A DNA stretch of 64,000 nt from Pseudomonadota bacterium (GTDB lineage Bacteria; Pseudomonadota; Alphaproteobacteria; Sphingomonadales; Govanellaceae). The notes beneath the pieces were generated by a model. It was not told the DNA's origin, ran no database searches, and saw only the letters and a program-made list of their open reading frames with translations. Numbering within the stretch: the first letter of the stretch is position 1; each line of letters starts with the position of its first letter. Positions 5,501-60,765 of this stretch are shown here, in pieces. The position numbers and the translations under genes were made by a program. Location: assembly GCA_003577275.1 (NCBI GenBank), contig QEVO01000002.1, forward strand, positions 248,001-312,000. The letters run 5' to 3'.

Positions 5501-6053
5501 GCGTCAGAATGTCGAACTCGAGATTGAACTTCTGACCCAGTTCATCTTGCCACTGCTCGACCAGGCTGCCGGGGGCGACTACGAGGCAACGCTCGAGGTC
5601 GCTCCGCGCGATGAGTTCCTTGATCAGCAAGCCCGCCATGATCGTCTTGCCGGCGCCAGGATCGTCTGCGAGCAGAAACCGCAACGGCTGCCGCGGAAGC
5701 ATCTCGCCATAGACCGCCGAAATCTGATGAGGCAGCGGATCGACGAGGCTGGTGTGGATGGCCAGATAAGGATCGAAAAAATGGGCAAGCTTGATGCGGT
5801 TGGCTTCGGTCACCAATCGAAGCAGCGAACCATCCGCGTCGAACGACCACGGCCGCCCGTCCTGCTCGACCTCGAGACGATGCTCGTCGTCCCGGTAGAG
5901 AACAGACTCCGCGACCGAGCCGTTGTGGTCGCGGTAGACGACATTGATCGCCTGATCTCCGATCCAGTCCACCGACACGATCTGCACGGGCTGCGCAGAC
6001 GCGATGCCGCGGACGGAGGCGCCGTTCTTGATGCTTTCGAGCTTGGCGGTCAT
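2550..6053 (-). CDS. SNF2-family helicase with C-terminal DUF3883 domain
   Basis: About 1167 aa. Walker A DPGAGKT lies at residues 131-137 and the DEAH box at 232-235; motif III (LMSATPHNG) and the C-terminal helicase signature QRFGRIHRIGQ follow. A charged coiled-coil-like stretch (EIEKVEQEVRARLKKE) precedes a C-terminal DUF3883-like domain (IGYDIASHNPKSGHLRFIEVKG), a nuclease-fold-like module found in NO VEIN and bacterial defence proteins. I chose ATG 6053 because a GGGGGAG Shine-Dalgarno sits 9 nt upstream; a GTG at 6071 is possible. It lies 25 nt after the WYL regulator and overlaps the sacsin-like gene by 4 nt. Probably a DNA translocase sensing or remodelling foreign DNA. It resembles DISARM DrmD in the helicase core, but no DISARM methylase or DrmABC is present. 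Confidence 0.88.
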   Translation of the reverse strand: MTAKLESIKNGASVRGIASAQPVQIVSVDWIGDQAINVVYRDHNGSVAESVLYRDDEHRLEVEQDGRPWSFDADGSLLRLVTEANRIKLAHFFDPYLAIHTSLVDPLPHQISAVYGEMLPRQPLRFLLADDPGAGKTIMAGLLIKELIARSDLERCLVVAPGSLVEQWQDELGQKFNLEFDILTRDMIETSRSGNPFNDRDRLIVRLDVLARNEDLQEKLMSAREWDLVICDEAHRMSATYFGGEVKYTRRYQVGQKLGQVCRHLLLMSATPHNGKEEDFQLFMALLDGDRFEGRFRDGVHYADTEDMMRRLTKEELLRFDGRPLFPERRARTVKYQLSEGEAALYAAVTEYVRTEMNRVQRFAEGDGKKRNNVGFALQILQRRLASSPAAIYQSLKRRRERLETELGEARLAAKGRRAGIGEPSVSSDVLGNIDEYGQDEIDELEELISTGSTTAETVEQLALEVDTLKGLESMALGVLRSGVDTKWTQLNRILDDDLMIDGAGNRRKLIIFTEPKDTLHYLLDKVRARLGSPEAVDVIHGGVSREERRKVIERFMQDKDLLVLIANDAAGEGVNLQRGHLMVNYDLPWNPNKIEQRFGRIHRIGQTEVCHLWNLVAADTREGEVYGRLLEKLEAAREALGGRVYDVLGELFEGTALKDLLFQAIQYGEQEEVRARLFRQVDGAVDQTHLLELLRRRALTNDTMPQAKVEELRLEMERAEALRLQPHHIQSFFVEAFQHLGGRLKRREEGRWEITHVPVRIRERDRQIGTGAPIQKQYERVCFEKSKINQQPVAAFICPGHPLLEAVISLIREQYEQIMRQGAILVDETDAGEALSAVFLLEHTVQDARTTSAGKPHIISQRLQFAAIDKAGNASNAGIAPHLNLRPAAPEEVDQVRDLLDEDWLTTELEKTAIRFATVELAQGHVAEVKARRIPEIEKVEQEVRARLKKEINYWDSRAFELKEEEKAGKKTRLSWQNAQRRAEDLAERQKRRMDQLERERFISSQPPRVRGGMVVIPRGLISARQNPTVPNHFAEDPAARREIELAAMQAVMAAERALGHEPLDVSAQKIGYDIASHNPKSGHLRFIEVKGRIDGADSLMITRQEIITSLHEPEKFILAVVAVNGGFAHEPRYVRGPLIDREPSFLETAIQFDLRRLLERAVPPS

Positions 6054-6078
6054 CAGCCGGCGCTCCCCCACAATATCG

Positions 6079-7091: not shown

Positions 7092-7235
7092 ATGCCAAAA
7101 CGCGGATCCAATAGTGAAGTCACCAGCAAGCGGGCGGCCAGCGCCGCAGCGAAAGTCCTGCGCGACCCGAAGAGCAGCAAAGCCGCGAAGACTGCCGCCG
7201 CCTCAGCGCTGACTCAGCGCTCGAACCGCAAGTGA
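7092..7235 (+). CDS. Small basic Ala/Lys/Ser-rich protein, unknown function
   Basis: 47 aa, starting MPKRGSNSEVTSKRAA and ending LTQRSNRK. GGGAG lies 6 nt before the ATG. The sequence is rich in Ala, Lys, Ser and Arg and has no Cys, Trp, Phe or Tyr, resembling small nucleic-acid-binding or histone-tail-like proteins. It is first in the rightward operon, ending 20 nt before the nuclease start. I recall similar small proteins in proteobacterial accessory DNA but know no function. A structural or regulatory partner of the nuclease-helicase pair is possible (inference). Confidence 0.6.
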   Translation: MPKRGSNSEVTSKRAASAAAKVLRDPKSSKAAKTAAASALTQRSNRK

Positions 7236-7255
7236 TTTCTGAGAGGTTGGCGGTC

Positions 7256-9910: not shown

Positions 9911-12900
9911 TGAGCAGCGTGTCCAAGGTGCTGAAGGACGACGGCGCGCGCCGCGATGCGATCAGCCTGCATGATCGCTCGATCTTGGTCGAGGCCGGCG
10001 CAGGTTCGGGCAAGACTGCCGTCATGGCTGGCCGCATCGCTGCGATGCTGGCCGAAGGCGTCGCGCCGCGTTCCATCGCCGCCGTCACCTTCACCGAACT
10101 CGCCGCGAGCGAGCTACTGTCGCGTGTCCGCGAGTTCGTCGCCGATCTCTCGGCCGGCACGATCGCGACCGAGCTGCGCGTGGCGCTGCCCGATGGGCTG
10201 TCCCAAGCCCATCGCGACAATCTCGCCGCCGCCAGCGCCGCGATCGACGAGATCACGTGCTCGACCATCCACGGCTTCTGCCAGCGCCTCATTAAGCCCT
10301 ATCCCGCGGAGGCCAACATCGATCCCGGCGCAGGGGTCATGGATCGCAACCAGGCCGACCTCACCTTCCTTGAGATTGTTGATGTCTGGCTGCGCGAACG
10401 CCTGTCCGGCGGTCAGGGCGGTATCCTGGCCGAGATGGTGCTGCACAGCCCCGGCGAGACCGTGGCGCTCATCCACAAGATCGCCGAGAATCTGCGCCGT
10501 CGCCCCACGCTCGCGGCCCCGGCCGTCTCCCCGCTTGACGGCCACCTGACGGCGTTCCGGCAGGCCGCTGCGGATTTCAAAGGCTTCATGGATGGTGTGA
10601 CTGCGGCAGAGCCGGAAACGGCGGCGATCGTCGAGCGGCTGGCCGAGATGGCGACCGCCTTGGCCAACGGTCCCGATCCCGCAACGCCTGCGGGCCTCGT
10701 CCGCCTCGTGACCTTGCGGCCACATCCGGACCTTTGCACCAAAGCCGGGGCCTTCGCCTCCTACCGCAAGAAGGGCAAATGGGCCGCCGCGGCGAAAGAG
10801 GTCGGCCTCTCCAAGGCCGACGGCGATCGGCTGAACGACGCCGCCGAGGTCCACTACACCGCCTGCTGCGGCGCCTGGGTCTCGCTTGTGCAGGCCGCCG
10901 CCAGCCACGCCCTGGCGGCGCTTATCGACGAAGCGCGTCCGATCCTGCAGCGCTATCGCGACCACAAGCGCGCCAGCGCTCAGCTCGATTTCGACGATCT
11001 GATTTTCGCCGCGCGCGACCTGCTGCGCGACCATGACGACGTTCGCCGAGCGCTCGGGCAGCGTTTCGCCCACGTCCTCGTCGACGAGTTCCAGGACACC
11101 GATCCCCTGCAAACCGAGATCTTCTGGCGCCTTTGCGGCGAACCGGCCGATGGCGATGACGACTGGACCGGGTTCCGCATCCGGCCGGGCGCGCTCTTCC
11201 TGGTCGGCGACCCCAAGCAGGCGATCTATCGCTTCCGGGGCGCCGATGTCGGCGCCTATGTGCAGGCGCGCGACGCCTTCCGCGACCAGGACCCCGGCAG
11301 CCTCCTGTCGATCTCCACCAATTTCCGCTCCTGCGCCTCGATCCTCACCTTCGTCAACGAGCGCTTCGAGGTCGCGCTCTCAGCCGATGGGCAGCCCGGC
11401 TTCACCGCGCTCGACCCGTTCCATGACGATCGCGGCGGCCTGTGCGTGGCGGCCCTCGACATCGCCGTGGCCGATGAAAACGGCAAGGCCAGCGCCGAGC
11501 AGCAGCGCGATGCCGAGGCCGACGCCATCGCCGATCTGTGCGCCCGGCTGATCGAAAGCCACCCAATCATCGACCGTCGCAGCGGCGTCGAGCGCCCCTG
11601 CCAGCCGGGCGACATCGCCTTGCTGGCGCCAACCGGCGCGGAGCTGTGGCGCTATGAGGAAGCCTTGGAACGCCGCGGCATCCCTGTCGCGACCCAAGCC
11701 GGCAAGGGGCTGTTCCGCCGCCAGGAGGTCCAGGATCTGATCGCGCTGACCCGCGTTCTGGCCGACCGCCGCGACACCCTGGCGCTCGGCGCGTTGCTGC
11801 GCGGCCCTCTGGTCGGCCTCACCGAAGAAAACCTGCTGGATATCATCTGGGGACTTCCGCGCTCGGAGGAACAGCCGGATCGGATTCCGCGCCTGGATCT
11901 CAGCATCGATCCCGCCGTCATCGCGCACCCGCTCGCGCGCGACGTCATCGAGCGGCTGCAATCGCTCTCCCGGCGCGGCAACAGCACGACCCCGCATGAG
12001 CTGCTGTCGCAGGCCGTGGACGTGATGCGCGTCCGTCCGCTCCTCCTCGAGCGCCATCGCGGCCAGGCCGAGCGCGCGCTCGCCAATGTCGATCTCTATC
12101 TCAGCCTGTCGACCGGCTACGCCGTGCGCGGTTTGCGCGCCTTCGCCGAGGCGATGACAGCGGCGTGGTCCGACGAGGCCCGCGCCGTCGAGGGACGGCC
12201 CGATGCCCAGGAGGAAGCGGTCGCGCTCTTCACCATGCACGCGGCCAAGGGGCTGGAATGGCCGATCGTCATTCCGGTCAACACCATGACAGGCGTCATG
12301 GCGCCCGACAGCGCCGTCATCGACCGCCAGGCCGAGACCTTCTACTGCCCGGTCCTGGGCGTCACGCCTGAGGGCTACGAAACCGCCCGCCAAGCGGAAA
12401 AGGAGGAGCTGGACCGCGAACGCATCCGGCTCTGGTATGTCGCAGCCACCCGCGCTCGCGAACTCCTCGTCCTTCCCCGGCTCGACGCCACACCGTCGAA
12501 ATCGGCCTGGATCGGCCTCGTCGATCTGTCGCTCGCCGGCTTGCCCGGACTGGACGTCTCTCACCTGCCTGCCGGCCTCACGGCGGCGGGTGCTGGCGCG
12601 GGCAACACCCAAACGCGCGCTAGCTTCGCCGCCGAAGCCGAAGCCATCGCAGCCGCGCAGACGCGGTTGACCCGGCTTGCACCCAGTCGCGATGAAAGCG
12701 CCGCCCAGACCGTCTTACGGGAAGAAGAAGGCGCGCTCTGGACGGGGGCGGCCGACGAGCAGCCTCCCGAATTGGAAGCCGCGACTCTCGTGCAGGGCGG
12801 CCGCGAACGTGGGCTGATCCTCCATAAGCTCATGGAAGAGGTTCTGACCGGCGAAATCCTGGAAACGGAGGCTGCCCTCATCGAACGGGCAGCCGAACTT

Positions 12901-13278
12901 ATCCGTGCTCTCGGCCATTCTCCGGTCGCCGACCCGGCGACGGGGCTGTCTGCTGAGGAACTGGCTGCCTGTGTCGCCCGGACCTTGGCCTTGCCCGACA
13001 TCGCGGCCTTGCGGCCGGGTCTTCTGGCCGAATTTCCTGTCTATTCCGCACAAGTCAACGACGGCGTGGAACACGTAACGGCCGGGATCGCCGATGCCCT
13101 GACCCTGACGGCCGAGGGTCAACCCGCGGTTGTCGTGGACTGGAAAAGCGATGTGACGCCGACGCCGGGAACGCTCGATCACTATCGGGCGCAGGTGCGG
13201 GCCTATCTCGACGTGACCGGTGCCGAGCGCGGGCTGATCGTGCTGATGACCTCCGGCACCGTCGTTCCCGTCCTATGA
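9907..13278 (+). CDS. AddA-like UvrD/Rep helicase-nuclease
   Basis: 1123 aa from ATG 9907. Superfamily 1A helicase motifs are intact: Walker A GAGSGKT (31-37), motif II VDEFQDTD (about 391-398), motif III GDPKQAIYRFRGAD, motif V FTMHAAKGLEWPIV and motif VI WYVAATRARELL. A RecB-like nuclease ends the protein, with GIADAL, then VVVDWKSD (D1078) and RAQVRAYLD. This is the AddA plan of a helicase plus nuclease. The gene is translationally coupled to the AddB-like protein. Chromosomes of this group normally carry their own addAB, so this second, divergent pair is probably an accessory system rather than the housekeeping one (inference). Confidence 0.88.
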   Translation: MMSSVSKVLKDDGARRDAISLHDRSILVEAGAGSGKTAVMAGRIAAMLAEGVAPRSIAAVTFTELAASELLSRVREFVADLSAGTIATELRVALPDGLSQAHRDNLAAASAAIDEITCSTIHGFCQRLIKPYPAEANIDPGAGVMDRNQADLTFLEIVDVWLRERLSGGQGGILAEMVLHSPGETVALIHKIAENLRRRPTLAAPAVSPLDGHLTAFRQAAADFKGFMDGVTAAEPETAAIVERLAEMATALANGPDPATPAGLVRLVTLRPHPDLCTKAGAFASYRKKGKWAAAAKEVGLSKADGDRLNDAAEVHYTACCGAWVSLVQAAASHALAALIDEARPILQRYRDHKRASAQLDFDDLIFAARDLLRDHDDVRRALGQRFAHVLVDEFQDTDPLQTEIFWRLCGEPADGDDDWTGFRIRPGALFLVGDPKQAIYRFRGADVGAYVQARDAFRDQDPGSLLSISTNFRSCASILTFVNERFEVALSADGQPGFTALDPFHDDRGGLCVAALDIAVADENGKASAEQQRDAEADAIADLCARLIESHPIIDRRSGVERPCQPGDIALLAPTGAELWRYEEALERRGIPVATQAGKGLFRRQEVQDLIALTRVLADRRDTLALGALLRGPLVGLTEENLLDIIWGLPRSEEQPDRIPRLDLSIDPAVIAHPLARDVIERLQSLSRRGNSTTPHELLSQAVDVMRVRPLLLERHRGQAERALANVDLYLSLSTGYAVRGLRAFAEAMTAAWSDEARAVEGRPDAQEEAVALFTMHAAKGLEWPIVIPVNTMTGVMAPDSAVIDRQAETFYCPVLGVTPEGYETARQAEKEELDRERIRLWYVAATRARELLVLPRLDATPSKSAWIGLVDLSLAGLPGLDVSHLPAGLTAAGAGAGNTQTRASFAAEAEAIAAAQTRLTRLAPSRDESAAQTVLREEEGALWTGAADEQPPELEAATLVQGGRERGLILHKLMEEVLTGEILETEAALIERAAELIRALGHSPVADPATGLSAEELAACVARTLALPDIAALRPGLLAEFPVYSAQVNDGVEHVTAGIADALTLTAEGQPAVVVDWKSDVTPTPGTLDHYRAQVRAYLDVTGAERGLIVLMTSGTVVPVL

Positions 13279-13375: not shown

Positions 13376-14590
13376 TTGGATACAGTACATAATCCTGATC
13401 GTTTTATGGCCGATCTCCGCCAAATCCTGTCACAGGGGCGCAAGCGCATTGGTATTCTAATTGGTGCCGGCGGCCCCCTTTCGGTGCGCGTCGACACAAG
13501 TGGCAAGCTTGACCCGAAGGGTCAGGCGCTGATCCCAGGCGTAAACGATTTGACTAACCAGGCATTGCAAAAACTAAGTGGTAATGAAGCAGCGGCAGCG
13601 GCGGAAATTCGAAAGTCTCTACCGGATGGCGGCAATATTGAAACCATATTGTCCAAGGTTCGCTTGCTCCAAACTGCGCTTGGGAACACGACTGTTCATG
13701 GTCTTGACAGCGCAGGCTATGCTGCATTGGGAAGGGCGATCTGTGAAGCGATCGGCGGGATCGTCGGCGCAAAGCTACCGGAAGGAAGAACTCCATACCA
13801 CGAACTTGTCTCCTGGGTCAGCGGAACGCAGCGAGCACACTCGGTCGAGATATTCACCACCAACTATGACCTGTTGATTGAAACCGCCTTCGAACAAGCA
13901 AAAGCACCGTATTTTGATGGTTTCACCGGCGGGCACGCACCGTTTTTTGACCCGGTCACGGTGGCGGGCAATGACTTGCCACCGCGCTGGTCCCGCGTTT
14001 GGAAGCTTCATGGATCGCTGGGTTGGAAAAGCGAAAACGGTGCGGTCGTCCGCTGCGGCGGTGCGGACTCCACCGAACTCGTCTACCCTGACCATCTCAA
14101 ATACGATCTGACACAGAAGCAACCCTATGCCGCGCTGTTCGAGCGATTGAAACGGTTTCTGCTTACACCCGACACAGTGCTTCTAACGACAGGCTTTTCA
14201 TTCCGCGACGCACACATCTGCGCAGTTCTAGGCGAGGCACTCGCGATGAATGCCAATGCTGCGGTGATCGCATTGCAATTTCAGACGCTTGCCGAAGAGG
14301 ATCCGGCACGTAAGCTTGCATTCGAACATCCAAATCTCTCAGTCTACGCCAGCGACGCAGCTGTGATCGGTGGCATTTCAGGTCCGTGGCGTTTGGGCGA
14401 CTTGCCCAAAAATTGGGGCGAAATTCGTTCGAGCTTCTGGGGTAAACGCGGCAGCAACGACGCATTCCTTTTAGGCGACTTTGCGAAGTTTTGCCGGTTT
14501 TGTGCGCTTTCCTACTCGCCCGATCTTGCTCGCCCGACTGAGGCGGCGATTCCGGTCGATGGACCCGACTCCGCTACGGTGTCAGCATGA
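13376..14590 (+). CDS. sir2: SIR2-domain NADase (SIR2-HerA defence system)
   Basis: 404 aa. TTG 13376 is the chosen start because AAGGA lies 8 nt upstream; ATG 13406 is an alternative. SIR2 motifs are clear: GAG (30-32) in the nucleotide-binding loop, TTNYD (161-165) with N163 and D165, and H212 in LHGSLGW as the likely catalytic base. The family hydrolyses NAD+ when activated by phage infection, causing growth arrest or death. The stop overlaps the HerA start (ATGA), the usual arrangement of SIR2-HerA pairs, which assemble into a large mixed complex. Base composition is visibly less GC-rich than in flanking genes, suggesting separate acquisition. Confidence 0.9.
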   Translation: MDTVHNPDRFMADLRQILSQGRKRIGILIGAGGPLSVRVDTSGKLDPKGQALIPGVNDLTNQALQKLSGNEAAAAAEIRKSLPDGGNIETILSKVRLLQTALGNTTVHGLDSAGYAALGRAICEAIGGIVGAKLPEGRTPYHELVSWVSGTQRAHSVEIFTTNYDLLIETAFEQAKAPYFDGFTGGHAPFFDPVTVAGNDLPPRWSRVWKLHGSLGWKSENGAVVRCGGADSTELVYPDHLKYDLTQKQPYAALFERLKRFLLTPDTVLLTTGFSFRDAHICAVLGEALAMNANAAVIALQFQTLAEEDPARKLAFEHPNLSVYASDAAVIGGISGPWRLGDLPKNWGEIRSSFWGKRGSNDAFLLGDFAKFCRFCALSYSPDLARPTEAAIPVDGPDSATVSA

Positions 14591-16422
14591 CTGCGACAGA
14601 CCCAACCTATCTCGGCCACGTAAGCGCCGTTTCTGGCTCGACAATAACGGTAAGGCTGGCCGAGTCCCTCTCCTCTGGTCTAGCTATGATCGATGGTCAT
14701 ACCTACCGTGTCGGTCAGGTAGGCAGCTTCGTCCGCATCCCTTTGGGCTATCAAGATCTATATGGCGTTGTCGCAGAGATCGGTGCTGCGGCCGCACCCC
14801 AGCATGTCGTTGTTGCAGATGTCGACGGCCAGGACACCGGCCGCTGGATGCGCGTCGAGTTGGCAGGCGAAGCAACCGGCGATCACTTTGAGCGCGGTCT
14901 CAGTCAGCATCCCAACGTCGATGACGCGGTGCACTTGGTCACCCAAAAGGATCTTCGGCGCATCTACGGTGGCGCAGAGGAAGATCAGATCGAAATCGGC
15001 ACGCTTTCGAGCGCCGAGAATATCGTCGTGCGCTTGTCACTCGACGCCTTGGTCACGCGACACAGCGCCATCGTCGGTTCCACGGGCTCAGGTAAGTCAA
15101 CTACGGTTGCGAGCTTGCTTCGTTCCGTAGTGCGTACCGCCGAAAACGTAAGCGCCAGCGGCGCACGCATCCTTCTCTTGGACGTGCATGGGGAATATTC
15201 CGCCGCACTCGGAGATCTCGCCAAAACATTCAGCGCTTCGCCCATGCCTGGCGAAGAGCCTCTATTCGTTCCTTACTGGGCGTTGGAGGCCGGTGAGTTA
15301 CTTGACTTCATCGCTGGTGGGCTAAGCGATAATCATTTGATCGCGTTTACCGACAAGATACAGGAGTTGAAAGAAAGCCGACTGGGCGCTGGCCCGCTTC
15401 CGGGGCTCGACCTGCAGTCACTCACTGTTGACAGTCCTGTGCCTTTTTCGCTGAAAAAGCTTTGGTATGACCTGATTGAATTCGAGACAGCTACATTTAC
15501 AGGGCCGCAACGTGACCAGCCTGCGCTTGAGGCTGCTGGTGACCCCGCGACCCTGACTCCTCCCCGCTATACGCCGCACGCAATGGGAGCCGCTGGTCCG
15601 TTCCTTAATCAGGCCGCGAAAGGTATCCGCCGGCAACTTAATCTGGTGCGCTCTCGTCTTCTCGATCGACGCTACGACTTCATCCTGCACCCTGGCCCTT
15701 GGGAGCCGGACCTGACCGGACAGACGGCACAGGACCTTGATACGCTGTTGGCTGGCTGGCTCGGCCATGACCGTCCAATCACTATCCTCGACCTCTCAGG
15801 CGTGCCTAGCAGTGTCTTGGTCCGGCTCATTGGCTCCATACTGCGCATTGTTTACGAAGCCCTCTATTGGAGTCGGGAGAAGACAGAGGGTGGCATCCTG
15901 CGCCCACTACTGATCGTGATGGAAGAAGCGCACCGTTATGTTAGTCCCGATAGCGGAAATGTCGCTGCCGATGTTGTAAAGCGCATAGCAAAGGAAGGTC
16001 GCAAATACGGGGTTGGTGCCATGCTGGTCTCTCAACGTCCGTCGGAGATCGATGAAACTATACTCTCCCAGTGCGGAACCCTCATAGCATTGAGGCTATC
16101 CAATCCAGCCGACCGCGGACGGGTGAAGGGCGCGCTTCCTGATAATCTATCAGGCCTCATGGATCTTCTGCCGGTACTACGGACTGGCGAGACCATCATT
16201 TCCGGTGAAGCCGCGAGATTACCCGTGCGCTGCCGTGTTTCGCTACCGCCCGCGGATCGCTTGCCCCGCAGTTCTGACCCCGAAGTCAGCAGAGCCTGGC
16301 GGACCCGCCGCGTAGCAGAAGGCTATGACCGCATGGTCGCGTCATGGCGAGCGCAACGAACCACTGCGGTCGTGCTAGATCTTGCTATCCAACGGACCCC
16401 CATCAACGAAGATGAACAGTAG
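14587..16422 (+). CDS. herA: HerA-like hexameric ATPase/translocase (SIR2-HerA system)
   Basis: 611 aa. The N-terminal HAS-barrel (GHVSAVSGSTITVRL) is followed by an FtsK/HerA ATPase core: Walker A GSTGSGKS (164-171), Walker B LLIVMEEAHRY (about 441-451), a sensor region AMLVSQRPSEID and an arginine-finger region near NPADRGRVKGALPD. In known SIR2-HerA systems the HerA hexamer scaffolds the SIR2 subunits and controls NAD+ hydrolysis and DNA cleavage. It is coupled to sir2 by a 4-nt overlap and followed after 8 nt by a KTSC protein. Codon use is softer than in the backbone, as for sir2. Confidence 0.9.
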   Translation: MTATDPTYLGHVSAVSGSTITVRLAESLSSGLAMIDGHTYRVGQVGSFVRIPLGYQDLYGVVAEIGAAAAPQHVVVADVDGQDTGRWMRVELAGEATGDHFERGLSQHPNVDDAVHLVTQKDLRRIYGGAEEDQIEIGTLSSAENIVVRLSLDALVTRHSAIVGSTGSGKSTTVASLLRSVVRTAENVSASGARILLLDVHGEYSAALGDLAKTFSASPMPGEEPLFVPYWALEAGELLDFIAGGLSDNHLIAFTDKIQELKESRLGAGPLPGLDLQSLTVDSPVPFSLKKLWYDLIEFETATFTGPQRDQPALEAAGDPATLTPPRYTPHAMGAAGPFLNQAAKGIRRQLNLVRSRLLDRRYDFILHPGPWEPDLTGQTAQDLDTLLAGWLGHDRPITILDLSGVPSSVLVRLIGSILRIVYEALYWSREKTEGGILRPLLIVMEEAHRYVSPDSGNVAADVVKRIAKEGRKYGVGAMLVSQRPSEIDETILSQCGTLIALRLSNPADRGRVKGALPDNLSGLMDLLPVLRTGETIISGEAARLPVRCRVSLPPADRLPRSSDPEVSRAWRTRRVAEGYDRMVASWRAQRTTAVVLDLAIQRTPINEDEQ

Positions 16423-52637: not shown

Positions 52638-53060
52638 ATGCGCGACCGGATGAACGTCTATTTCCCGCCCGAGATGCTCCGCCAGATCGCCGATCTCGCC
52701 GACCGCAAGAAGCTCTCCCGCTCCGCGATCGTCGAGGCAGCGGTTGCGTCGTTCCTGTCGCCCGATGGCGCGGACAAGCGCGAGGCCGCGTTCGCGCGCC
52801 GCCTTGATCGGCTGTCGCGTCAGGTCCAGCGTCTCGAGCGCGACCTCGGCGTCACCGCAGAAACCCTCGCCCTGTTCGTCCGGTTCTGGCTGACGATCAC
52901 GCCGCCTTTGCCGAACGATGCTCAAGCGTCAGCACAGGCCAAAGGGCGGGAACGCTATGAAGGCTTCATCGAGACGCTGGGGCGACGCCTGCAGAAGGGG
53001 CAGACCTTCTTGAGGGAGATCCCGGACGACATCAGCGGCGGGGACACATCAGATGGATAA
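52638..53060 (+). CDS. RHH (CopG-like) transfer-associated protein
   Basis: 140 aa from ATG 52638. The N-terminal ribbon-helix-helix RMNVYFPPEMLRQIADLADR, KKLSRSAIVEAAVASFL is followed by a coiled-coil-like helix (LDRLSRQVQRLERDLGVTAE) and a hydrophobic patch. It is a constant neighbour of traG and normally lies directly before trbB; here the cargo operon separates the two. It probably acts as accessory or regulatory DNA-binding protein of transfer. Confidence 0.85.
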   Translation: MRDRMNVYFPPEMLRQIADLADRKKLSRSAIVEAAVASFLSPDGADKREAAFARRLDRLSRQVQRLERDLGVTAETLALFVRFWLTITPPLPNDAQASAQAKGRERYEGFIETLGRRLQKGQTFLREIPDDISGGDTSDG

Positions 53061-53316
53061 TATAACATTCGGAATGGTTTATGCTGTTCCGCTCAGCGCC
53101 CTCACCTCGGTCATCGCTGACGATTCTTCAAACGCCCGAAGTCGACATCTTTGTCGAAGCTGGGACTCCAGCGGAGTCGGATAGTTCGGCAAGTTTCTGG
53201 CCAGGCTGACCTCCTACCGATGCTCGATCAGCTCTGGCTGATTTCGGGCTGGCATAAGGGCTCGCCTTCGCTGGGTACTGCCCAGTGCGAAGGAAGTGCA
53301 GTCGGGCACCTACGGC
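53061..53316. other. Intergenic, left border of the cargo insertion
   Basis: 256 nt between the RHH gene and the 3' end of the leftward cargo operon. It begins with a locally AT-rich stretch (GATAATATAACATTCGG near 53055). No gene or clear repeat matching the right side of the cargo is seen; the boundary of insertion probably lies here. Confidence 0.35.
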
Positions 53317-56300
53317 CTACAGCGTCTCGGACGGGTCCGCTGACGGGCTAGCGACCGATCCAAGTGCGGGGAGATCGACCGACCCAAACGCTAGGATGGC
53401 GTCGAGATGGCGCATGACGTGCTCGAAATCGGAGCCGAGCACCGGCGGACGATCCCCGACCGTTTCAGCAAACGCACGGTGCAGAAGGACCCGCGAACGC
53501 GCGTTTGGGGTTCGGTATGCAAACGCGACCTTCTCCGGTGAATCGACACCCCGACGGATCGCGTAGGCGAAGATTTCGAGCACTGCAGGATTCGCAGCGA
53601 TCTTCTCCTTAGCCGTCAGCGTTTGGCGGATAACCTCTGCGGCCGCTGCGGCGACCATGTAGAGTTGTCGATTGGCGATCCGATTGATCAGGTCGCGCGT
53701 ACGCTTGCAGACACCGATCTTGGCCGCGGGAACGCCAAGTGAAGCCTCGATGCGATCGAAGGGTTCGCCTTTGAGCCACGCAGTCAGCGCGGTCTTGAGT
53801 AGCGTCATTTCCGCAGCCGTGCTGTCGCCGCCGGTCTTCTTGCCGCGAGTGACAGCCTTGACCGTCTCGACAGCTGATCCAAACAGCAAGGCGTAGCTTG
53901 TGCGATCGGCGGTCATGAAATCGATTAGCCATTCCATCCAATCGCATACGGTCGAGGGTAACGAGTCGATTTCCGCCTCAACTTTCGCCGCAATGGCCGC
54001 TAGTGGCTCGACCGCAAGACCCGTGAAGGCAGCGATCTGTATCACGGGCACCGACGTCTGTTCAGTGGCCGTGTCAAGCGCGGTCCTCAACGCACCGAGT
54101 TTCTCGTCGAAAGCGGCATCCTGCTTGGCTTGCCGCGCCTGGTATCCGGCAAAGGAACGGCTGATCATCTTGACCGCCATTTCGACGGCCGTGTCTTCCG
54201 CTTCGCCCGCCCTAAGTCGGCTCAGGAGGTAGCGCACACCCGCACCAGAGAGTTCGCCGGCCTGAATGCGGTCAAGCAACGGAGTCAGCGGATCGTCGAT
54301 CGTCACGCATTGATCGTTCTCCGGCAGCACCGCCTTAAGCATCTCGAAGGCTTCGCTTTCGGGGACGGAATTCGCGTCGAATTGCACCACTGGTTCCGGA
54401 ATCAGGAGCACTGTACCGTTCGCCAGATGGCCGGCGCGTCCGGCACGACCGGCTGCGTTCAATATCTCATGGCCTTCGAGCGGTTTGCGGCCATCTTCAT
54501 TGTGCCGCATCGTGCCTGCCAAGATCGCGATTTGCGCGGGAAGGTTCATGCCCTGCGCCAGCGTCGGGGTCGCGACGATGACGTTGACGCCTCCGGCCTT
54601 CTTGAAGACCGATTCGGCGAGCCGTCGCTCGAGCGGGATCATGTCTCCGTTATGTGGGATTGCGGGCGCAGTTGGGTCGAACAGCGAGCAGCATTCAGCA
54701 CCGAGTTCAGCCACCGTGTCGACCCAGAGGCTATTTTCGGTTTCAGTGAGAGCGGGCGGAGACGGCAGCTTGCCACGAAGCCGCTTCGCCGTGGTCGGCG
54801 CGTGGTCGGCTTGCTGTACGAACATGATGGTCTTCAGTCCAGCAACAGCCGCGTTCTTGGCCAAAGCTGCCCCGACATCATTCGCGTTGGGGCTTGCTCC
54901 GCCCGTCCCACGCCCGAGTACGACGGGCACATCGGAAAGCCGCACGAGCCGCATGTCGGTCGGAACGGTTTTAAGCCAGGCATGGTGCAGCCCGAACAAT
55001 GCATATGCGTCGGCATTGAGCGGTGGTGCCTTGTAGGACGCTTTGAGCCGTTTCTTACGCCGGACGATCATGTTTGCGGCATCGACTTGCGCCTTCGGAT
55101 AGATCACCACGCCGCGTGCCTGCCGGCTCGGCTTCCAGGGATCATGAAAACCGACACAGGCACGCCCGGTAATCGTGGCAAGCCAATCGGCCACCTCTCC
55201 AGCATTCTTCAGCATCGCAGAGAGCAAAAGGAGATCGGCGTTTGGTGCGCGTTTGATAGCATGGAGCAAACACAGCATTGCGTCCACGCTACGGGACCCG
55301 CCGCCATCGGGGCTCAACAGATGGCATTCATCGAAGACCAACAGGCCAAGATCGCTCATGTCGGTGTCGGTGAAGCTCAGCAGCGCAAGGCATCGCTCGG
55401 GAGTCATCACTTCGATCGACTCGAGCTCTGGTCCGCGGATCATCGCGGTGAGATCGCCATCGGCCGACACCACGCTCTCTATCAGACTCTCTGGAAAGCT
55501 CTCGGCAAGATCATCACGAAGCTGATCGACCAGAGCCAAGGTCGGGACGAGGAAGATGACCTTCTTGCCGGCCGACAAGGTCGAGGCGATCTTCAACTCT
55601 GAAAGCGTGGTTTTGCCCGCGCCGGTGGGCAGTACCAGCACCGCTGACTTTCCAACATCCAGAAAATGCGTAGCCAGAGCGGCGCGGTGATTCGGCCAAA
55701 GCACCGGTTTGCTCGACGCGCGATGGCGAACCCACAGCTTCCAAGAATTCTCTTCCGCACCCGCGGGCGGTGGGATTCGAGTGACGCCAACGTCCTCAAG
55801 TCCGTCTGCGACGTGCATAAGCAACCGCGCCAGATGACGCGGTCCCGCATAGCTGGAGGTAATGTTGAGGCCAGTGTCCGGAAGATTCAGCGGACGGGTT
55901 GCGAGTTCCACCACTCGGGCGAAGGCATGCTGAGGGGTTTCGAACGATTGATAGGCGAGCTCGACACGAGGACGATCGAGCAACCGTGCTACCATTTGCA
56001 CCAGACCGCTCCAGCACAATCCGTACAACGCCTGCGTCGCTCGTTCATCAAACGGCGCATCGGCCCCAGGCCGCAATCCTGCCAAACGGTTGGCACGCTC
56101 GAGGATCGCTTCAAATCGTTCCAAGGCAAGGTCTTCGACGCTTTCTACCAAAGCGCCGCGATGAATATCTTCAAGACGGGGGCCTGCGAGCTCGCGAGCG
56201 GCTTCACGCGCGTCAGGGCTCTGTTCAGCAATCAGGAACAGAAGTGGTGCCGATACGCGCGGGTCAATGGCCCGCGTGGTCAGGAGTTCATCGCGCTCCT

Positions 56301-56598
56301 CGAGATCCGGGCGGATACGGGCCAGAAGCTGATAGGCGGTCGCTGCGACGAAGGCGGCGGCCCGGCGTTCGTGATCTTCTGCACCGCGGTCGACGAGCGC
56401 TTCGTAGATAGTCGCGATCCGCTCGATACGCGCGAGTTGGGCGAGGTAGTCGGGCTGCTCGGCTAGCGATGCCGCACGCAGCCTGAGGCCGGCCAGTTCG
56501 GCATAGATACCGGTCAGTTCTTGCGGCAGCATCGACGGGTCGACGCCCTCAAGAGCCGGCGCGCTCCGGATCAAGGCTGCGGTTTGCGCGTCAAACAT
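53317..56598 (-). CDS. DExH helicase of a Hachiman-like nuclease-helicase pair (HamB-like)
   Basis: 1093 aa from ATG 56598, which overlaps the preceding stop by 8 nt. A long N-terminal helical region (about 300 aa) is followed by a Ski2-like helicase: Walker A LPTGAGKTTLSELK, box II VFDECHLLSP, motif III LLLSAM, motif V NVIVATPTLAQGMNLPAQ and motif VI ILNAAGRAGRAGHL. A C-terminal helical part follows. With the upstream nuclease-like gene this matches the Hachiman plan (HamA effector, HamB DNA-sensing helicase); AbpAB is an alternative. It lies last in a five-gene operon headed by hipBA. Confidence 0.78.
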   Translation of the reverse strand: MFDAQTAALIRSAPALEGVDPSMLPQELTGIYAELAGLRLRAASLAEQPDYLAQLARIERIATIYEALVDRGAEDHERRAAAFVAATAYQLLARIRPDLEERDELLTTRAIDPRVSAPLLFLIAEQSPDAREAARELAGPRLEDIHRGALVESVEDLALERFEAILERANRLAGLRPGADAPFDERATQALYGLCWSGLVQMVARLLDRPRVELAYQSFETPQHAFARVVELATRPLNLPDTGLNITSSYAGPRHLARLLMHVADGLEDVGVTRIPPPAGAEENSWKLWVRHRASSKPVLWPNHRAALATHFLDVGKSAVLVLPTGAGKTTLSELKIASTLSAGKKVIFLVPTLALVDQLRDDLAESFPESLIESVVSADGDLTAMIRGPELESIEVMTPERCLALLSFTDTDMSDLGLLVFDECHLLSPDGGGSRSVDAMLCLLHAIKRAPNADLLLLSAMLKNAGEVADWLATITGRACVGFHDPWKPSRQARGVVIYPKAQVDAANMIVRRKKRLKASYKAPPLNADAYALFGLHHAWLKTVPTDMRLVRLSDVPVVLGRGTGGASPNANDVGAALAKNAAVAGLKTIMFVQQADHAPTTAKRLRGKLPSPPALTETENSLWVDTVAELGAECCSLFDPTAPAIPHNGDMIPLERRLAESVFKKAGGVNVIVATPTLAQGMNLPAQIAILAGTMRHNEDGRKPLEGHEILNAAGRAGRAGHLANGTVLLIPEPVVQFDANSVPESEAFEMLKAVLPENDQCVTIDDPLTPLLDRIQAGELSGAGVRYLLSRLRAGEAEDTAVEMAVKMISRSFAGYQARQAKQDAAFDEKLGALRTALDTATEQTSVPVIQIAAFTGLAVEPLAAIAAKVEAEIDSLPSTVCDWMEWLIDFMTADRTSYALLFGSAVETVKAVTRGKKTGGDSTAAEMTLLKTALTAWLKGEPFDRIEASLGVPAAKIGVCKRTRDLINRIANRQLYMVAAAAAEVIRQTLTAKEKIAANPAVLEIFAYAIRRGVDSPEKVAFAYRTPNARSRVLLHRAFAETVGDRPPVLGSDFEHVMRHLDAILAFGSVDLPALGSVASPSADPSETL

Positions 56599-57379
56599 CG
56601 AACGTCGAAATCCGCGCCCAGACGCGATCCGCGAAATCAGCAAACCAGGCCCGAACGTCGTCTAGCGGGAGCGTGTTACCGCCGCGCTTGTCCAAAGCCA
56701 CCTGAAGAGAATCATAGTCCTTGAACAACGCGACGCATTTGGCCGCTGGAAACTGCGATGGCGAAACAGTCAGCGATGCTTCAAACGCCAGCGGGCGTGT
56801 CTGAATCAGCGTGTCATATGCCGTCTTGAGCTCGTATCCATTGAAGCCGTAGCTTTCCAGCAAGGCGAGAACGGCTTGAGCCAGCTGATTATCGCGCTTG
56901 CCAGAAATATACTCACGAAACGACTTCAACACCTGACTCTGGAATTTTTGCCGGGCATGGATCGTGCATTTGTACTCGTAGACGGTCGCCTTCGTCAGCG
57001 TCTTCGTCGCTGGATCGACCGTAATCTTGACGCCATCAGTGCCCTGGTTGGTCGCCTTAAGGTGCGAATTGTCGATCTTTTCATCGCCCGTCTTGCCCTT
57101 TCGGGCAGCGACCCAGCAAATGATCTCAAATAAAAGACCATCGCGATGTTCGATACCCTTTTCCGTCGTAGGATGCAGATCTTTGTCGAGCGTATCTTTC
57201 AGCCCTGCCGTGATTTTCGGCGGCGCTAATTGCGTGCCCACAAGGATCAGTGCCGCGTGGAATGCCTGACCGACCAACACCAGCGCGACAAGCTGCGCGA
57301 GATCGTCAGGGGCGTCGACGCTCCATTGTTCTCCCTCGCATTGGGGGAGCGCCGACATAGGATTAAGAGTGATCGGCAC
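56591..57379 (-). CDS. PD-(D/E)XK nuclease-like protein (HamA-like)
   Basis: 262 aa from GTG 57379, two nt after the previous stop; ATG 57358 is an alternative. A nuclease-type pattern is visible: GLLFEIICWVAARKG (Glu), NQGTDGVKITVD (Asp) and TVYEYKCTIHARQKFQ (E-x-K), similar to DUF1837/HamA effectors of Hachiman that cleave DNA when released by the helicase. The 8-nt overlap with the helicase gene implies a joint complex. Assignment to HamA is by pattern and neighbour, not by alignment. Confidence 0.65.
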   Translation of the reverse strand: MPITLNPMSALPQCEGEQWSVDAPDDLAQLVALVLVGQAFHAALILVGTQLAPPKITAGLKDTLDKDLHPTTEKGIEHRDGLLFEIICWVAARKGKTGDEKIDNSHLKATNQGTDGVKITVDPATKTLTKATVYEYKCTIHARQKFQSQVLKSFREYISGKRDNQLAQAVLALLESYGFNGYELKTAYDTLIQTRPLAFEASLTVSPSQFPAAKCVALFKDYDSLQVALDKRGGNTLPLDDVRAWFADFADRVWARISTFDV

Positions 57380-57381
57380 GC

Positions 57382-57918
57382 CTATCCCAGACCTTCAAGT
57401 AACGTTCGGTAATCTTGGATGCCATGCTCTCGCATCGCCTTGATGGCTTCGACGCGGGTCCTTCGACCCAATTCGGCATCCTCGACGAAGCGCGTGCCCC
57501 TCAGCGCGGCGACATGAGCTGTGTCCAGCCCATGATATTCGGCGCCGGCAATGACGGTCGCGAGGTACCAATCGAAAGGCCGTAATGTGTGGTCCAACGA
57601 GGTGCCCAGATAGCTGCTCGCCGGAACAGTGCTTCCCTCGATGGCGAAAGTGTCCTCGCGCCGGTAGCCAGAGCCTGCTCCCTCGTGCCGGTCCAACTGC
57701 TCTTGTTCGGCCAGATCAATCTCGAAAATGACCCCGGGAACGGCGGAATTCGGGGCGATAACCAGGGTCGCCTTTCCTGAGCCGTCCTTACTCGCCTTCG
57801 AAAACGCAAGACTCCAGGCGCGTGCAACTCCCGTCCTGACGACCTTCGCCGACGGGCAACGGCCAAGCAGACGTGCCGGCAACATGTTGGAGCCATAAGC
57901 GAAGTAGAGAAATGTCAT
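57382..57918 (-). CDS. Gamma-glutamylcyclotransferase-like protein
   Basis: 178 aa. FAYGSNMLPARLLGRCPSAK is the typical YGSN loop of GGCT/AIG2-like enzymes; GVIFEIDLAEQEQLDRHEGA holds the usual glutamate after the barrel strands. Family members cyclise gamma-glutamyl peptides or amines, or act on gamma-glutamyl groups. It starts at 57918 with a 4-nt overlap of the hipA stop, so it is part of the hipBA operon. An unusual link: it joins a toxin module and a nuclease-helicase pair. Its substrate is unknown. Confidence 0.83.
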   Translation of the reverse strand: MTFLYFAYGSNMLPARLLGRCPSAKVVRTGVARAWSLAFSKASKDGSGKATLVIAPNSAVPGVIFEIDLAEQEQLDRHEGAGSGYRREDTFAIEGSTVPASSYLGTSLDHTLRPFDWYLATVIAGAEYHGLDTAHVAALRGTRFVEDAELGRRTRVEAIKAMREHGIQDYRTLLEGLG

Positions 57919-59234
57919 TGGCCATTGCTCCCTTCGACATTCGCTCCATCGCGCAGTTGGCTGGCCGAGCGGCCGGATTCCGCCACCGTCAGCGCGCAGC
58001 GCGCCGCCCGTTCGCGGACCATCGCGGCGAGGCTTTCGATCGCCTTCCGATCGAAGCCGGGGCGCACCAACTCGGCGGTAACCTCGCCTGTTCGCGCGAT
58101 CACGCCTTTGCTGATCTCCGCGACCCGCCTGCGTATCAGCGGCAGGCCGACACCCGCTTCCGCCGCGAACGCTGCCCAACCCTTCGCATCCAGTTCGGCA
58201 AGCGTCGCTCGTTTCCCGATCTTCATGGCAAATTTCGGCGAGAGATCGGGATAGGCAACGGTCGCAAGCAAATCATACAGCGGGGCTAGGCGTGGGCCTT
58301 CGTCGCCGTAGAGGATCGAAAAATTCTTGCCGTGTGCGTCGGCGTTCCCGGCGATCACATTGAAGATCACCGCATCGAGAAGCTTCAGCACATCCACAGC
58401 GGGCCTTGCGGCGACGCGGCGGAGCAGCGCGAAGCAATCCCTGAAGGTCGGGCCGCCCTCGCTCGCGTATTTGGTCTCCGGTGGCACGCCGAGCGCCTGG
58501 CAGAAATCCTCCTGATGGATGCGGCGCACAAAGCCATCGTCGCCAATGACGCGGTCATAGCGCTGGACCAGCAGAAACGTCCGATCCTGCACGATGCGCG
58601 CTTCTACCGGCGCGACATCGATACCGATCGCGGCGGCAAGGCGCATCACGAACGCCTCGTTCTCGGTCGTCGCCGCGAACCGCGATATCGGCGGTTTGAG
58701 AATATGCGTCGTCGGCTGGCCCGGCGCAGGCAAGGCCACCACGCCATCCACCAGAACCACCGGAACCTTCGATTGCGCGCCAGCGAGAGAGAGACGCAGG
58801 CCTTCCTCGCCAGCCAGCAATGGTCGGACGGGCAGCGCATCCAGAACCCGGATCAACCCTGCATCGTCAAGTGGGGTTGGCCGTTGATCGGGGGCAAGAG
58901 TGGCTGGTACTTCGCCGGGCGGCAGAAGCTGGAGCGCGCCCGCCACATCGCCGCCGAGGCGATCAAGAAGGGCGAAATCATTGGCCCGCGACACGCCGAG
59001 TGCCTGAGCCGCGGCGTCGCGCTGGCTTTCTTCCGGCAGGAGACCGCCGAAAAACGGGCGGCACTCGCGACGACTGAACGGCTCCGCCCGCTTTGGCAGC
59101 GAGGCGGACAATGGCTGCGCCTGCTCATCGTCAAGCCAAGCCGGCGCATAGGCGAAGCCGAGTTCACCGTGCTTGTCCTGCGTCAGCTGGCCTACCAGGC
59201 GCCCGTCCCACCAGATATCGAGGGTGCGCGTCAT
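57915..59234 (-). CDS. hipA: HipA-family serine/threonine kinase toxin
   Basis: 439 aa. The N-terminal subdomain (WDGRLVGQLTQDKHGELGFAY) is followed by the kinase part: P-loop-like LSLAGAQSKVPVVL, the catalytic GNADAHGKNFSILYG with Asp and Asn, and the metal-binding Asp in LAPLYDLLATV. HipA kinases phosphorylate aminoacyl-tRNA synthetases or similar targets and stop growth. It overlaps hipB by 4 nt upstream and the GGCT-like gene downstream. Confidence 0.92.
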   Translation of the reverse strand: MTRTLDIWWDGRLVGQLTQDKHGELGFAYAPAWLDDEQAQPLSASLPKRAEPFSRRECRPFFGGLLPEESQRDAAAQALGVSRANDFALLDRLGGDVAGALQLLPPGEVPATLAPDQRPTPLDDAGLIRVLDALPVRPLLAGEEGLRLSLAGAQSKVPVVLVDGVVALPAPGQPTTHILKPPISRFAATTENEAFVMRLAAAIGIDVAPVEARIVQDRTFLLVQRYDRVIGDDGFVRRIHQEDFCQALGVPPETKYASEGGPTFRDCFALLRRVAARPAVDVLKLLDAVIFNVIAGNADAHGKNFSILYGDEGPRLAPLYDLLATVAYPDLSPKFAMKIGKRATLAELDAKGWAAFAAEAGVGLPLIRRRVAEISKGVIARTGEVTAELVRPGFDRKAIESLAAMVRERAARCALTVAESGRSASQLRDGANVEGSNGQ

Positions 59235-59473
59235 GCCTTCCGCGCTCCTTTGGTGTCGGGCGGCGGTGTGATATCGAGTGAGCAGCCGAGTGCAGCGAGG
59301 ACCTGAAGCGTCTTGCCGATCTGCGCGGTCGGCTTTCCCGCTTCGAGATCGACGATGAAGCGCAGGCCGACGCCAGCTGCGCCGGCAAGCTCGTCCTGCC
59401 GCAAGCCAGCGGCCTTGCGGGTGGTTCGCACAATGTCGCCGATCTCGGCGGTGGTGAGGTTGCGCCTGGCCAT
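59231..59473 (-). CDS. hipB: HipB-family antitoxin
   Basis: 80 aa from ATG 59473. XRE HTH: IGDIVRTTRKAAGLRQDELA, then GAAGVGLRFIVDLEAGKPT, and a C-terminal strand LGCSLDITPPP typical of HipB dimers. It binds HipA and represses the operon through the palindromes immediately upstream (59478-59591). A longer frame to 59614 overlaps the operators and is rejected. Confidence 0.9.
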   Translation of the reverse strand: MARRNLTTAEIGDIVRTTRKAAGLRQDELAGAAGVGLRFIVDLEAGKPTAQIGKTLQVLAALGCSLDITPPPDTKGARKA

Positions 59474-59477
59474 GATA

Positions 59478-59591
59478 TTTACCGAACGGGAAAGTATCAT
59501 GGATTCCTGAAGAATGTCTATAAGAATTTCCCGCTCGGGAAAGCCTGCGTGTTGAGGTAGCTCCCGGGTCTGAATTATTCCCGCTCGGGAA
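59478..59591 (-). promoter_or_regulatory. Three HipB operator palindromes upstream of hipB
   Basis: TTTCCCGCTCGGGAAA (59527-59542) and TTCCCGCTCGGGAA (59578-59591) are perfect palindromes with the same core. TTTACCGAACGGGAAA (59478-59493), next to the start codon, is a weaker third copy. Multiple spaced sites fit cooperative binding of HipB or HipBA to the whole promoter. Confidence 0.85.
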
Positions 59592-59775
59592 AACGCGCCA
59601 ATCAGGAGCCGCAAACGCTGCCGTGGCTCGACGCCGGTCCGCCGATCACCTGTCTTTCTTCGCCACAGTACGATGACCCCTCAACCGTTGTTGCAACGCC
59701 CCAGTTCCTGCCTTTCTTACTCATCCCCGATCCAGGGCCGCGCGTCGCGCGGGCCCGCAAGCGAACGGGGACGAC
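59592..59775. other. Right border of the cargo, upstream of trbB
   Basis: The last part of the 302-nt gap between hipB and trbB. No gene is seen. The sequence just before trbB (GGGGACGAC) supplies a possible ribosome site. In relatives trbB follows the RHH gene directly, so the right junction of the cargo lies here. Confidence 0.4.
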
Positions 59776-60765
59776 GTGGCGGTCAACCATCAGCAATCGG
59801 AAGCAGCCTCCCGCGGCGCACGCATGTTGCGCACCGCCTTGGGGCCTGCGGTCGCCCGATTCCTGGAAGACCCCGCGATCGTCGAGGTCATGCTCAACCC
59901 CGATGGGCGGCTCTGGATCGACCGACTCTCTGACGGCCTGTCCGATACGGGAGAGCGACTTTCGGCAGCCGATGGCGAACGCATCGTCCGCCTTGTCGCC
60001 CATCATGTCGGCGCCGAGGTGCATGACCGTCGCCCGCGCCTCTCGGCCGAGCTCCCCGAAACCGGCGAGCGCTTCGAAGGCCTGCTTCCGCCGGTCGTAA
60101 CGGCACCGGTCTTCGCGATCCGCAAGCCTGCCGTCGCCGTCTTCACGCTCGACGACTATGTCGCCGCCGGCATCATGACGGCGGACCAGGCCGTCATCCT
60201 CCGGCAGGCGGTCGCAGCGCGCGCCAACATCCTCGTGGCCGGAGGAACCAGCACCGGCAAGACCACCCTGACCAACGCCCTGCTAGCCGAGGTCGCGAAG
60301 ACGGCCGACCGAGTCATCGTCATCGAAGACACCCGCGAACTGCAATGCAGGGCGCAGAACATCGTCGCCATGCGCACCAAGGACGGCGTCGCGACCCTAT
60401 CCGACCTGGTGCGCTCCTCGCTGCGGCTGCGGCCGGATCGGATCCCGATCGGTGAAGTGCGTGGGTCTGAGGCGCTCGATCTCCTGAAGGCCTGGGGCAC
60501 CGGCCATCCCGGCGGGATCGGCACGATCCACGCCGGCACCGCACTCGGCGCGCTGCGCCGCCTCGAGCAGCTCATCCAGGAAGCTGTCGTCACCGTCCCC
60601 CGGGCGCTGATCGCCGAGACCATCGATCTGGTGGCTGTGCTCTCCGGCCGCGGCGCTGCGCGGCGTCTCGCCGAACTCGCCCGCGTCGAAGGGCTCGGGA
60701 CGGACACCGACTACCGCCTTTCCCCCGCAACCCAGCCTCCCGACCCACAAGGAGAACCCGCATGA
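59776..60765 (+). CDS. trbB: TrbB, VirB11-like secretion ATPase
   Basis: 329 aa from GTG 59776. Walker [17 protein letters not shown] (about 155-170), the Asp box [30 protein letters not shown] and the His box [13 protein letters not shown] are intact. A hexameric ATPase at the inner membrane that drives pilus assembly and substrate transfer. It starts the trb operon. Its stop overlaps the trbC start. Confidence 0.93.

What the first reader, a model, noticed from the sequence alone, without database searches (positions are those of the whole stretch)
53317..59591. Five-gene composite operon: hipB-hipA-GGCT-nuclease-helicase
All junctions are overlaps or 2-nt gaps (4-nt, 4-nt, 2-nt gap, 8-nt overlap), so a HipBA toxin-antitoxin, a gamma-glutamylcyclotransferase-like enzyme and a Hachiman-like nuclease-helicase pair are one transcription and translation unit under HipB operators. 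I know of no described system of this composition. HipB could act as a shared sensor, and the kinase, GGCT-like enzyme and nuclease as layered effectors.
Basis: partly seen in the sequence, partly recalled or inferred. Interest (0 to 1): 0.75.

Follow-up and report, generated by a model that had tools for sequence, protein, structure and literature searches.

The report
Phage-defence cassette behind toxin-antitoxin pair
Five overlapping genes on a bacterial conjugative element join a toxin-antitoxin pair, a small enzyme gene and a nuclease-helicase pair that is predicted to work like the Hachiman antiphage system; relatives carry the parts separately, so this is likely two stacked defence modules sharing one promoter rather than one five-part machine.

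Summary

One co-evolved five-part system is not supported. hipBA occurs alone with operators at the same offsets. ggct-hamAB occurs without hipBA in two genomes. One element at the same site keeps hipB-hipA-ggct and lacks hamAB. hamAB is 97-99% identical between elements whose hipBA and backbone are about 91-95% identical, with the step inside ggct, so hamAB moves as a block.

The new part is the GGCT gene: active site conserved, directly before hamA in a group of HamAB loci, also inside a type III restriction operon and beside some other defence-like genes, though not always. Best reading: a divergent GGCT-Hachiman cassette captured behind hipBA and probably read from the HipB-controlled promoter. 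The GGCT's role is untested.

The parts
59578..59591 (.). operator 1, TTCCCGCTCGGGAA, -118 from hipB start
   Evidence: exact match; same offset in L003, L004, L005, L027 and, with one mismatch, L043; not seen in L040
59528..59541 (.). operator 2, -68 from hipB start
   Evidence: exact match; same offset in all six other loci looked at (L003, L004, L005, L027, L040 exact; L043 one mismatch)
59479..59492 (.). operator 3, one mismatch, -19 from hipB start
   Evidence: same offset in all six other loci with 0-2 mismatches
59231..59473 (-). hipB, HTH antitoxin/autorepressor, 80 aa
   Evidence: TIGR03070 couple_hipB 78.8 bits, cut-off 71.65
57915..59234 (-). hipA, HipA-family Ser/Thr kinase toxin, 439 aa
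   Evidence: HipA_C 182.7 bits, Couple_hipA 92.3 bits; aligns with solved HipA, E 2.7e-38
57928..57935 (-). GAAGGGAG, predicted ribosome-binding site of ggct, inside the codons of the HipA C-terminal extension
   Evidence: identical in the four loci printed: window, L003, L004, L027
57382..57918 (-). ggct, gamma-glutamyl cyclotransferase-like (GGACT/AIG2_2), 178 aa
   Evidence: Pfam above cut-offs; human GGCT E 9.5e-10; GSN and E79 conserved
56591..57379 (-). hamA-like PD-(D/E)XK nuclease, 262 aa, GTG start
53317..56598 (-). hamB-like Ski2-type helicase, 1093 aa
   Evidence: PADLOC HamB E 9.9e-36; HamB entries are Foldseek's top three, best E 1.9e-17, aligned from the N-terminal region on
53400..57550 (-). 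approximate exchanged block: hamB, hamA and the 3' end of ggct, 97-99% identical where its surroundings are about 91-95%
52638..53060 (+). CopG-like gene after traG, left border of the cargo site (start codon chosen by eye)
   Evidence: ORF; annotated CopG family between traG and trbB in Indioceanicola L082
59776..60765 (+). trbB, right border of the cargo site
   Evidence: site empty (174 bp between CopG gene and trbB) in L082

Best explanation
The five overlapping minus-strand genes are likely two defence modules in series: a Hachiman-type cassette (ggct-hamA-hamB) that was probably captured behind a self-sufficient hipBA toxin-antitoxin module of a conjugative element, so that the HipB-repressed promoter would drive all five. 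Predicted working: HipB on its three operators keeps the unit low; HamB, a Ski2-type helicase with a HamB-like N-terminal region, surveys DNA and holds the HamA nuclease; damaged or phage DNA would release HamA to degrade DNA in the cell. The GGCT is predicted to be an active gamma-glutamyl cyclotransferase that serves the nuclease module as an accessory (a modulator or second effector acting on a gamma-glutamyl compound). HipA would act as an ordinary HipBA toxin and stabiliser of the element, not as part of the HamAB circuit. Shown from sequence: gene order, overlaps, operator-like sites, fold matches of models, active-site conservation, separability of the modules. Inferred: transcription as one unit, operator binding, every activity, and the role of GGCT.
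Against: No expression data; one transcript is inferred. HamA has no Pfam, PADLOC or NCBIfam hit, and Foldseek alone gave no match at E 0.001 or better. By VIA-align Z the helicase is tied between HamB and archaeal Hel308/Hjm (21.0 each), and by sequence its best solved relatives are SLH1 and Brr2, HamB coming later at E 4.3e-20. The five-gene form is known here only with one set of flanks, L002-L005 are metagenome bins, and the L003 hamB frame stops at codon 885. L007 has HamAB at 73-78% identity without GGCT, so GGCT is not essential to that lineage. L029, L030, L032, L044, L045 and L087 have no evident defence partner, so GGCT could be metabolic. In the tree 26 of the 40 rows have unknown context, L049 in that clade has no HamAB beside it, the fork that puts L027 beside window and L003 is weak (92/65), and exchange inside ggct blurs it.
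Confidence: 0.66

Rival explanations
1. One integrated five-part abortive-infection system: HipB senses infection or stress and releases HipA, GGCT and HamAB together as layered effectors.
For: Overlapping genes, one operator cluster, string kept in four other genomes, one of them cut off and one with an early stop in hamB; the HipA tail carrying the predicted ggct ribosome-binding site is the same in four loci.
Against: Each half exists without the other; hamAB and hipBA have different synonymous divergence in the same elements; operators lie at the same offsets where hipBA is alone.
Confidence: 0.12
2. hipB-hipA-ggct is a three-part toxin-antitoxin unit in which GGCT acts with HipA, and hamAB is a passenger inserted after it.
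For: L027 keeps exactly hipB-hipA-ggct with dN/dS of 0.2 or less against the window; 38 of 120 listed HipA relatives carry the ggct-type tail.
Against: GGCT precedes hamAB without hipBA in L006 and L050, and nine further HamA/GGCT pairs have equal contig lengths (inference); the hipBA-linked GGCTs are nested inside the clade that holds most hamAB-linked ones; 82 of 120 listed HipA relatives lack the tail.
Confidence: 0.13
3. GGCT is an ordinary metabolic enzyme that hitch-hikes with defence genes and plays no part in immunity.
For: Related genes sit alone, for instance near a dnaK-like gene (L029); human GGCT is a metabolic enzyme (recalled); L007 does without it.
Confidence: 0.25

Closest known systems
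Hachiman (HamAB), E. coli ECOR31, PDB 8VX9
   Same: Two adjacent genes; HamA-fold nuclease with D...E-X-K residues; Ski2-type helicase with the HamB N-terminal region aligned (PMC12278908, passages seen)
   Different: HamA only 12% identical over the structural alignment and outside the Pfam/PADLOC/NCBIfam profiles tested; preceded by a GGCT gene and here by hipBA
Nuclease-protease pairs acquired by Hachiman, AVAST, Lamassu and DRT (PMC12799240, abstract and passages seen)
   Same: A portable accessory gene set joins Hachiman and other unrelated immune systems
   Different: Here the accessory is a GGCT-family enzyme as a separate gene
HipBA type II toxin-antitoxin
   Same: HipB HTH, HipA kinase, operator-like sites upstream
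   Different: HipA C-terminal tail overlaps, and carries the predicted ribosome-binding site of, a third gene, ggct
Human gamma-glutamyl cyclotransferase (2i5t, 2pn7, 3cry)
   Same: YGSN stretch and the glutamate (E79 here) align
   Different: Bacterial AIG2_2 subfamily with conserved RCPSA- and DGSGKATL-like stretches, in several cases next to defence genes (contexts)
Phage GGCT genes with amidoligase and ATP-grasp genes (PMC11945000, passages; PMC11318856, passages)
   Same: GGCT-family gene on a mobile element
   Different: Those papers read them as peptidoglycan-modification or host-metabolism genes of phages; no nuclease partner is named in the passages seen

Membership tests
Hachiman (HamAB) | HamA nuclease fold | tested here: met
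Hachiman (HamAB) | D-E-X-K catalytic residues of HamA | tested here: met
   D115, E135, K137 invariant in 32 of 32 aligned relatives; motif as described in PMC12278908
Hachiman (HamAB) | HamA recognised by HamA/DUF1837 profiles | tested here: not met
   0 families at E <= 0.1 in Pfam, PADLOC and NCBIfam. It is therefore filed as Hachiman-like, outside the profile-defined family
Hachiman (HamAB) | HamB helicase including N-terminal domain | tested here: met
Hachiman (HamAB) | HamA next to HamB | tested here: met
   36 of 37 loci, some with partial hamB; contig end in the other
Hachiman (HamAB) | Phage protection and DNA-damage-triggered nuclease | not testable with these tools
   needs bench work
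HipBA toxin-antitoxin | HipB above couple_hipB cut-off; HipA N- and C-domains | tested here: met
HipBA toxin-antitoxin | kinase residues of HipA | tested here: met
   NADAHGKNFS and PLYD align with GATDGHAKNFS and PFYD of E. coli HipA; which residues are catalytic is recalled
HipBA toxin-antitoxin | palindromic operators upstream of hipB | tested here: met
   three sites at fixed offsets, also in relatives with hipBA alone; binding not tested
gamma-glutamyl cyclotransferase | YGSx loop and catalytic Glu | tested here: met
   GSN in 126 of 126 rows with letters (10 gapped), Tyr in 124 of 126; E79 in 133 of 136; role of the Glu recalled
gamma-glutamyl cyclotransferase | 5-oxoproline-forming activity | not testable with these tools
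   needs enzyme assay

The most novel reading that the evidence does not exclude
GGCT is a portable third component of nuclease-based bacterial immunity: a GGCT-Hachiman type in which a gamma-glutamyl cyclotransferase gates or complements HamAB, swapped between Hachiman, type III restriction and HipBA operons, and in this element wired into a HipB promoter so that toxin release and DNA surveillance rise together.
Probability: 0.25. Interest if true: 0.75.

Novelty: new variant of a known kind. Interest (0 to 1): 0.5.

Why it matters
It extends Hachiman to a lineage that the profile libraries tested here miss, and points to an enzyme class, gamma-glutamyl cyclotransferase, that recurs beside nuclease defence genes; eight full-text searches with GGCT or AIG2 terms (open-licence library) did not show it described in that role. 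L027, which lacks hamAB at the same site, and L006/L050, which lack hipBA, make the test of which genes are needed direct.

Tried and rejected
Scans of viral contigs with the HamA alignment and with GGCT gave no relatives; with the HamB alignment two HamAB loci without GGCT. PDB sequence search with the HamA profile found nothing up to E 10; Foldseek on the HamA model gave no match at E 0.001 or better, so the HamA assignment rests on VIA-align. One of ten equal contig lengths between the HamA and GGCT lists was too short to hold both genes and was dropped. That hamAB was a late insertion behind hipBA-ggct (L027 as ancestor) is disfavoured, not excluded: L027's GGCT sits inside the clade that holds most hamAB-linked ones, but the nearest fork is 92/65. 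That GGCT always marks defence was rejected. Of 23 GGCT places looked at (window, L002-L006, L027-L032, L036, L044, L045, L049-L051, L084-L088), 7 precede hamAB, L027 follows hipBA, L031 and L088 lie with DNA methylases, L049 and L085 after WYL genes (in L085 the GGCT match is in three pieces), L036 after DUF6119; L028 and L051 neighbour a gene of unknown function, 68% identical between them; L084 and L086 are fusions with an unassigned part; L029, L030, L032, L044, L045 and L087 show no partner. Of 13 plasmid records with GGCT I looked at 6. Papers: passages seen of PMC12278908, PMC12799240, PMC8934634, PMC11318856, PMC5126054, PMC11945000, PMC7251935, PMC8649781 and PMC5120126; no whole text was read. 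The last names E. coli ytfP, a GGCT-domain gene, beside the chpSB toxin-antitoxin pair; not followed up.
Full report
Observation. Three palindromes TTCCCGNNCGGGAA (the third with one mismatch) lie 118, 68 and 19 nt before hipB; the window has 3 such matches against 0.41 expected, and the two exact sites are the only exact ones in the held 3.25-Mb genome. The same three offsets occur in L003, L004, L005, L027 and L043, with up to 2 mismatches, and two of the three in L040. L040 and L043 carry hipBA without ggct or hamAB in the stretch held (only 4.3 kb for L043). The minus-strand sigma-70-like sites in 52900-59900, 3 of 3, lie at or just upstream of the hipB start; that is a consensus match, not proof of one transcript.

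Distribution. The genome-contig scan gave 16 loci. Three hold all five genes (L003, L004, L005; the L003 hamB frame stops at codon 885), and L002 holds the string as far as its contig reaches into hipA; the records name Hyphomonadaceae, Reyranella, Phenylobacterium and Roseomonas, all metagenome bins. L003, L004 and L005 share the flanking conjugation genes with the window, L002 as far as the CopG-like gene. L006 (Cohaesibacter) and L050 have ggct-hamA-hamB without hipBA. In the 37 held loci over 4.5 kb with hamA (shorter copies of the same places left out), hamB follows in 36 and ggct directly precedes in 6. Nine pairs of HamA and GGCT entries in the protein searches share the same longest-contig length and would fit on it (inference). 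In 396 genomes of the order, GGCT (E <= 1e-40) was found in 6 and HamA (E <= 1e-20) in 15; only the window's genome and G752 are in both lists. In 385 genomes of the class, HamA (E <= 0.001) was found in 3 and GGCT (E <= 1e-20) in 3, only the window's genome in both.

History. L027 has the same backbone and hipB-hipA-ggct, but window 53078-57372 is absent, and a search of its genome gave no HamA match. In the GGCT tree (58 rows) 12 of 14 hamAB-linked rows lie in one 40-row clade (99/93) and all 14 in a 43-row clade (98/89); the hipBA-linked rows and L027 are nested in a 9-row set (95/84). So ggct-hamAB is probably the older unit, hipBA joined it in one element line, and hamAB was probably later lost in L027; the fork nearest L027 is weak (92/65). 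Between the window and L003/L004, dS is 0.23-0.34 for hipBA but 0.06-0.10 for hamAB. Against L003-L005 identity is 97.2-97.8% for hamA and hamB, 97.0-97.6% for the 3' end of ggct, 90.6-95.3% for its 5' part, 91.3-91.5% for hipA and 92.7-94.9% for trbB; against L002, 99.1% for hamA and hamB and 92.2% for the hipA part held. The step falls inside ggct. Exchange of hamAB as a block would give this. HipA in the composite has a tail whose codons contain GAAGGGAG nine bases before the ggct start, identical in the four loci printed; of the 120 listed HipA relatives (of 7990 found) 38 have such a tail and 82 do not.

GGCT elsewhere. A GGCT sits between mod and res of a type III system with 1-nt and 4-nt overlaps (L031). 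Others lie between a 366-aa and a 498-aa gene of unknown function (L028), 15 nt after DUF6119 (L036), 123 nt after a WYL-nucleotidyltransferase pair (L049), and 74 nt after a DNA methylase (L088). Against this, L029, L030, L032, L044, L045 and L087 show no such neighbour. HamAB relatives carry other upstream genes: a SEC-C protein overlapping hamA by 4 nt (L008, L009, L067), a DUF2326 protein (L035), Fic (L037), and mod-res (L069). This resembles the swapping of accessory genes reported for nuclease-protease pairs (PMC12799240, passages). Phages also carry GGCT genes, with amidoligase and ATP-grasp genes (PMC11945000 and PMC11318856, passages); whether host GGCTs answer such modules is open.

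Judgement. The gene string is genuine and kept, but the evidence favours two separable modules over one machine. The GGCT-Hachiman association is the new element. The searches named above gave no paper that joins GGCT with Hachiman or treats it as part of a nuclease defence system, or joins HipA with Hachiman as one unit, as far as listings and the passages seen go. That library lacks most subscription papers.

Noticed in passing
window 2550-6071 (-): Hma-type helicase: PADLOC HmaA 1599 bits, with NO VEIN C-terminal domain.
   Followed up: partly
window 13376-16422 (+): SIR2-HerA defence pair, overlapping genes, PADLOC 531 and 527 bits.
   Followed up: partly
window 7232-13278 (+): PD-(D/E)XK protein and UvrD helicase in overlapping ORFs, AddAB-like by arrangement.
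   Followed up: no
L008 8565-9998; L009 490-1923; L067 7965-9458: A 477-497 aa SEC-C protein of unknown function overlaps hamA in three HamAB loci: another accessory of the same nuclease-helicase pair.
   Followed up: partly
L069 4934-13158: mod-res-hamA-hamB in one close run: a HamAB relative directly behind a type III restriction pair.
   Followed up: partly
L003 3414-6068: hamB frame ends early at codon 885 in this metagenome bin; natural or a sequencing error is open.
   Followed up: no
L082 4408-7220: CBASS genes between relaxase and traG of a related conjugative plasmid: traG flanks look like a cargo site.
   Followed up: no
L084 3302-4510; L086 3014-4531: GGCT domain at the C-terminus of 402- and 505-aa proteins with an unassigned N-terminal part, the second near Shedu genes.
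   Followed up: no
L028 8564-10060; L051 7093-8625: A ~500-aa protein family without Pfam or PADLOC hit, 68% identical between the two, sits next to a GGCT in both.
   Followed up: partly
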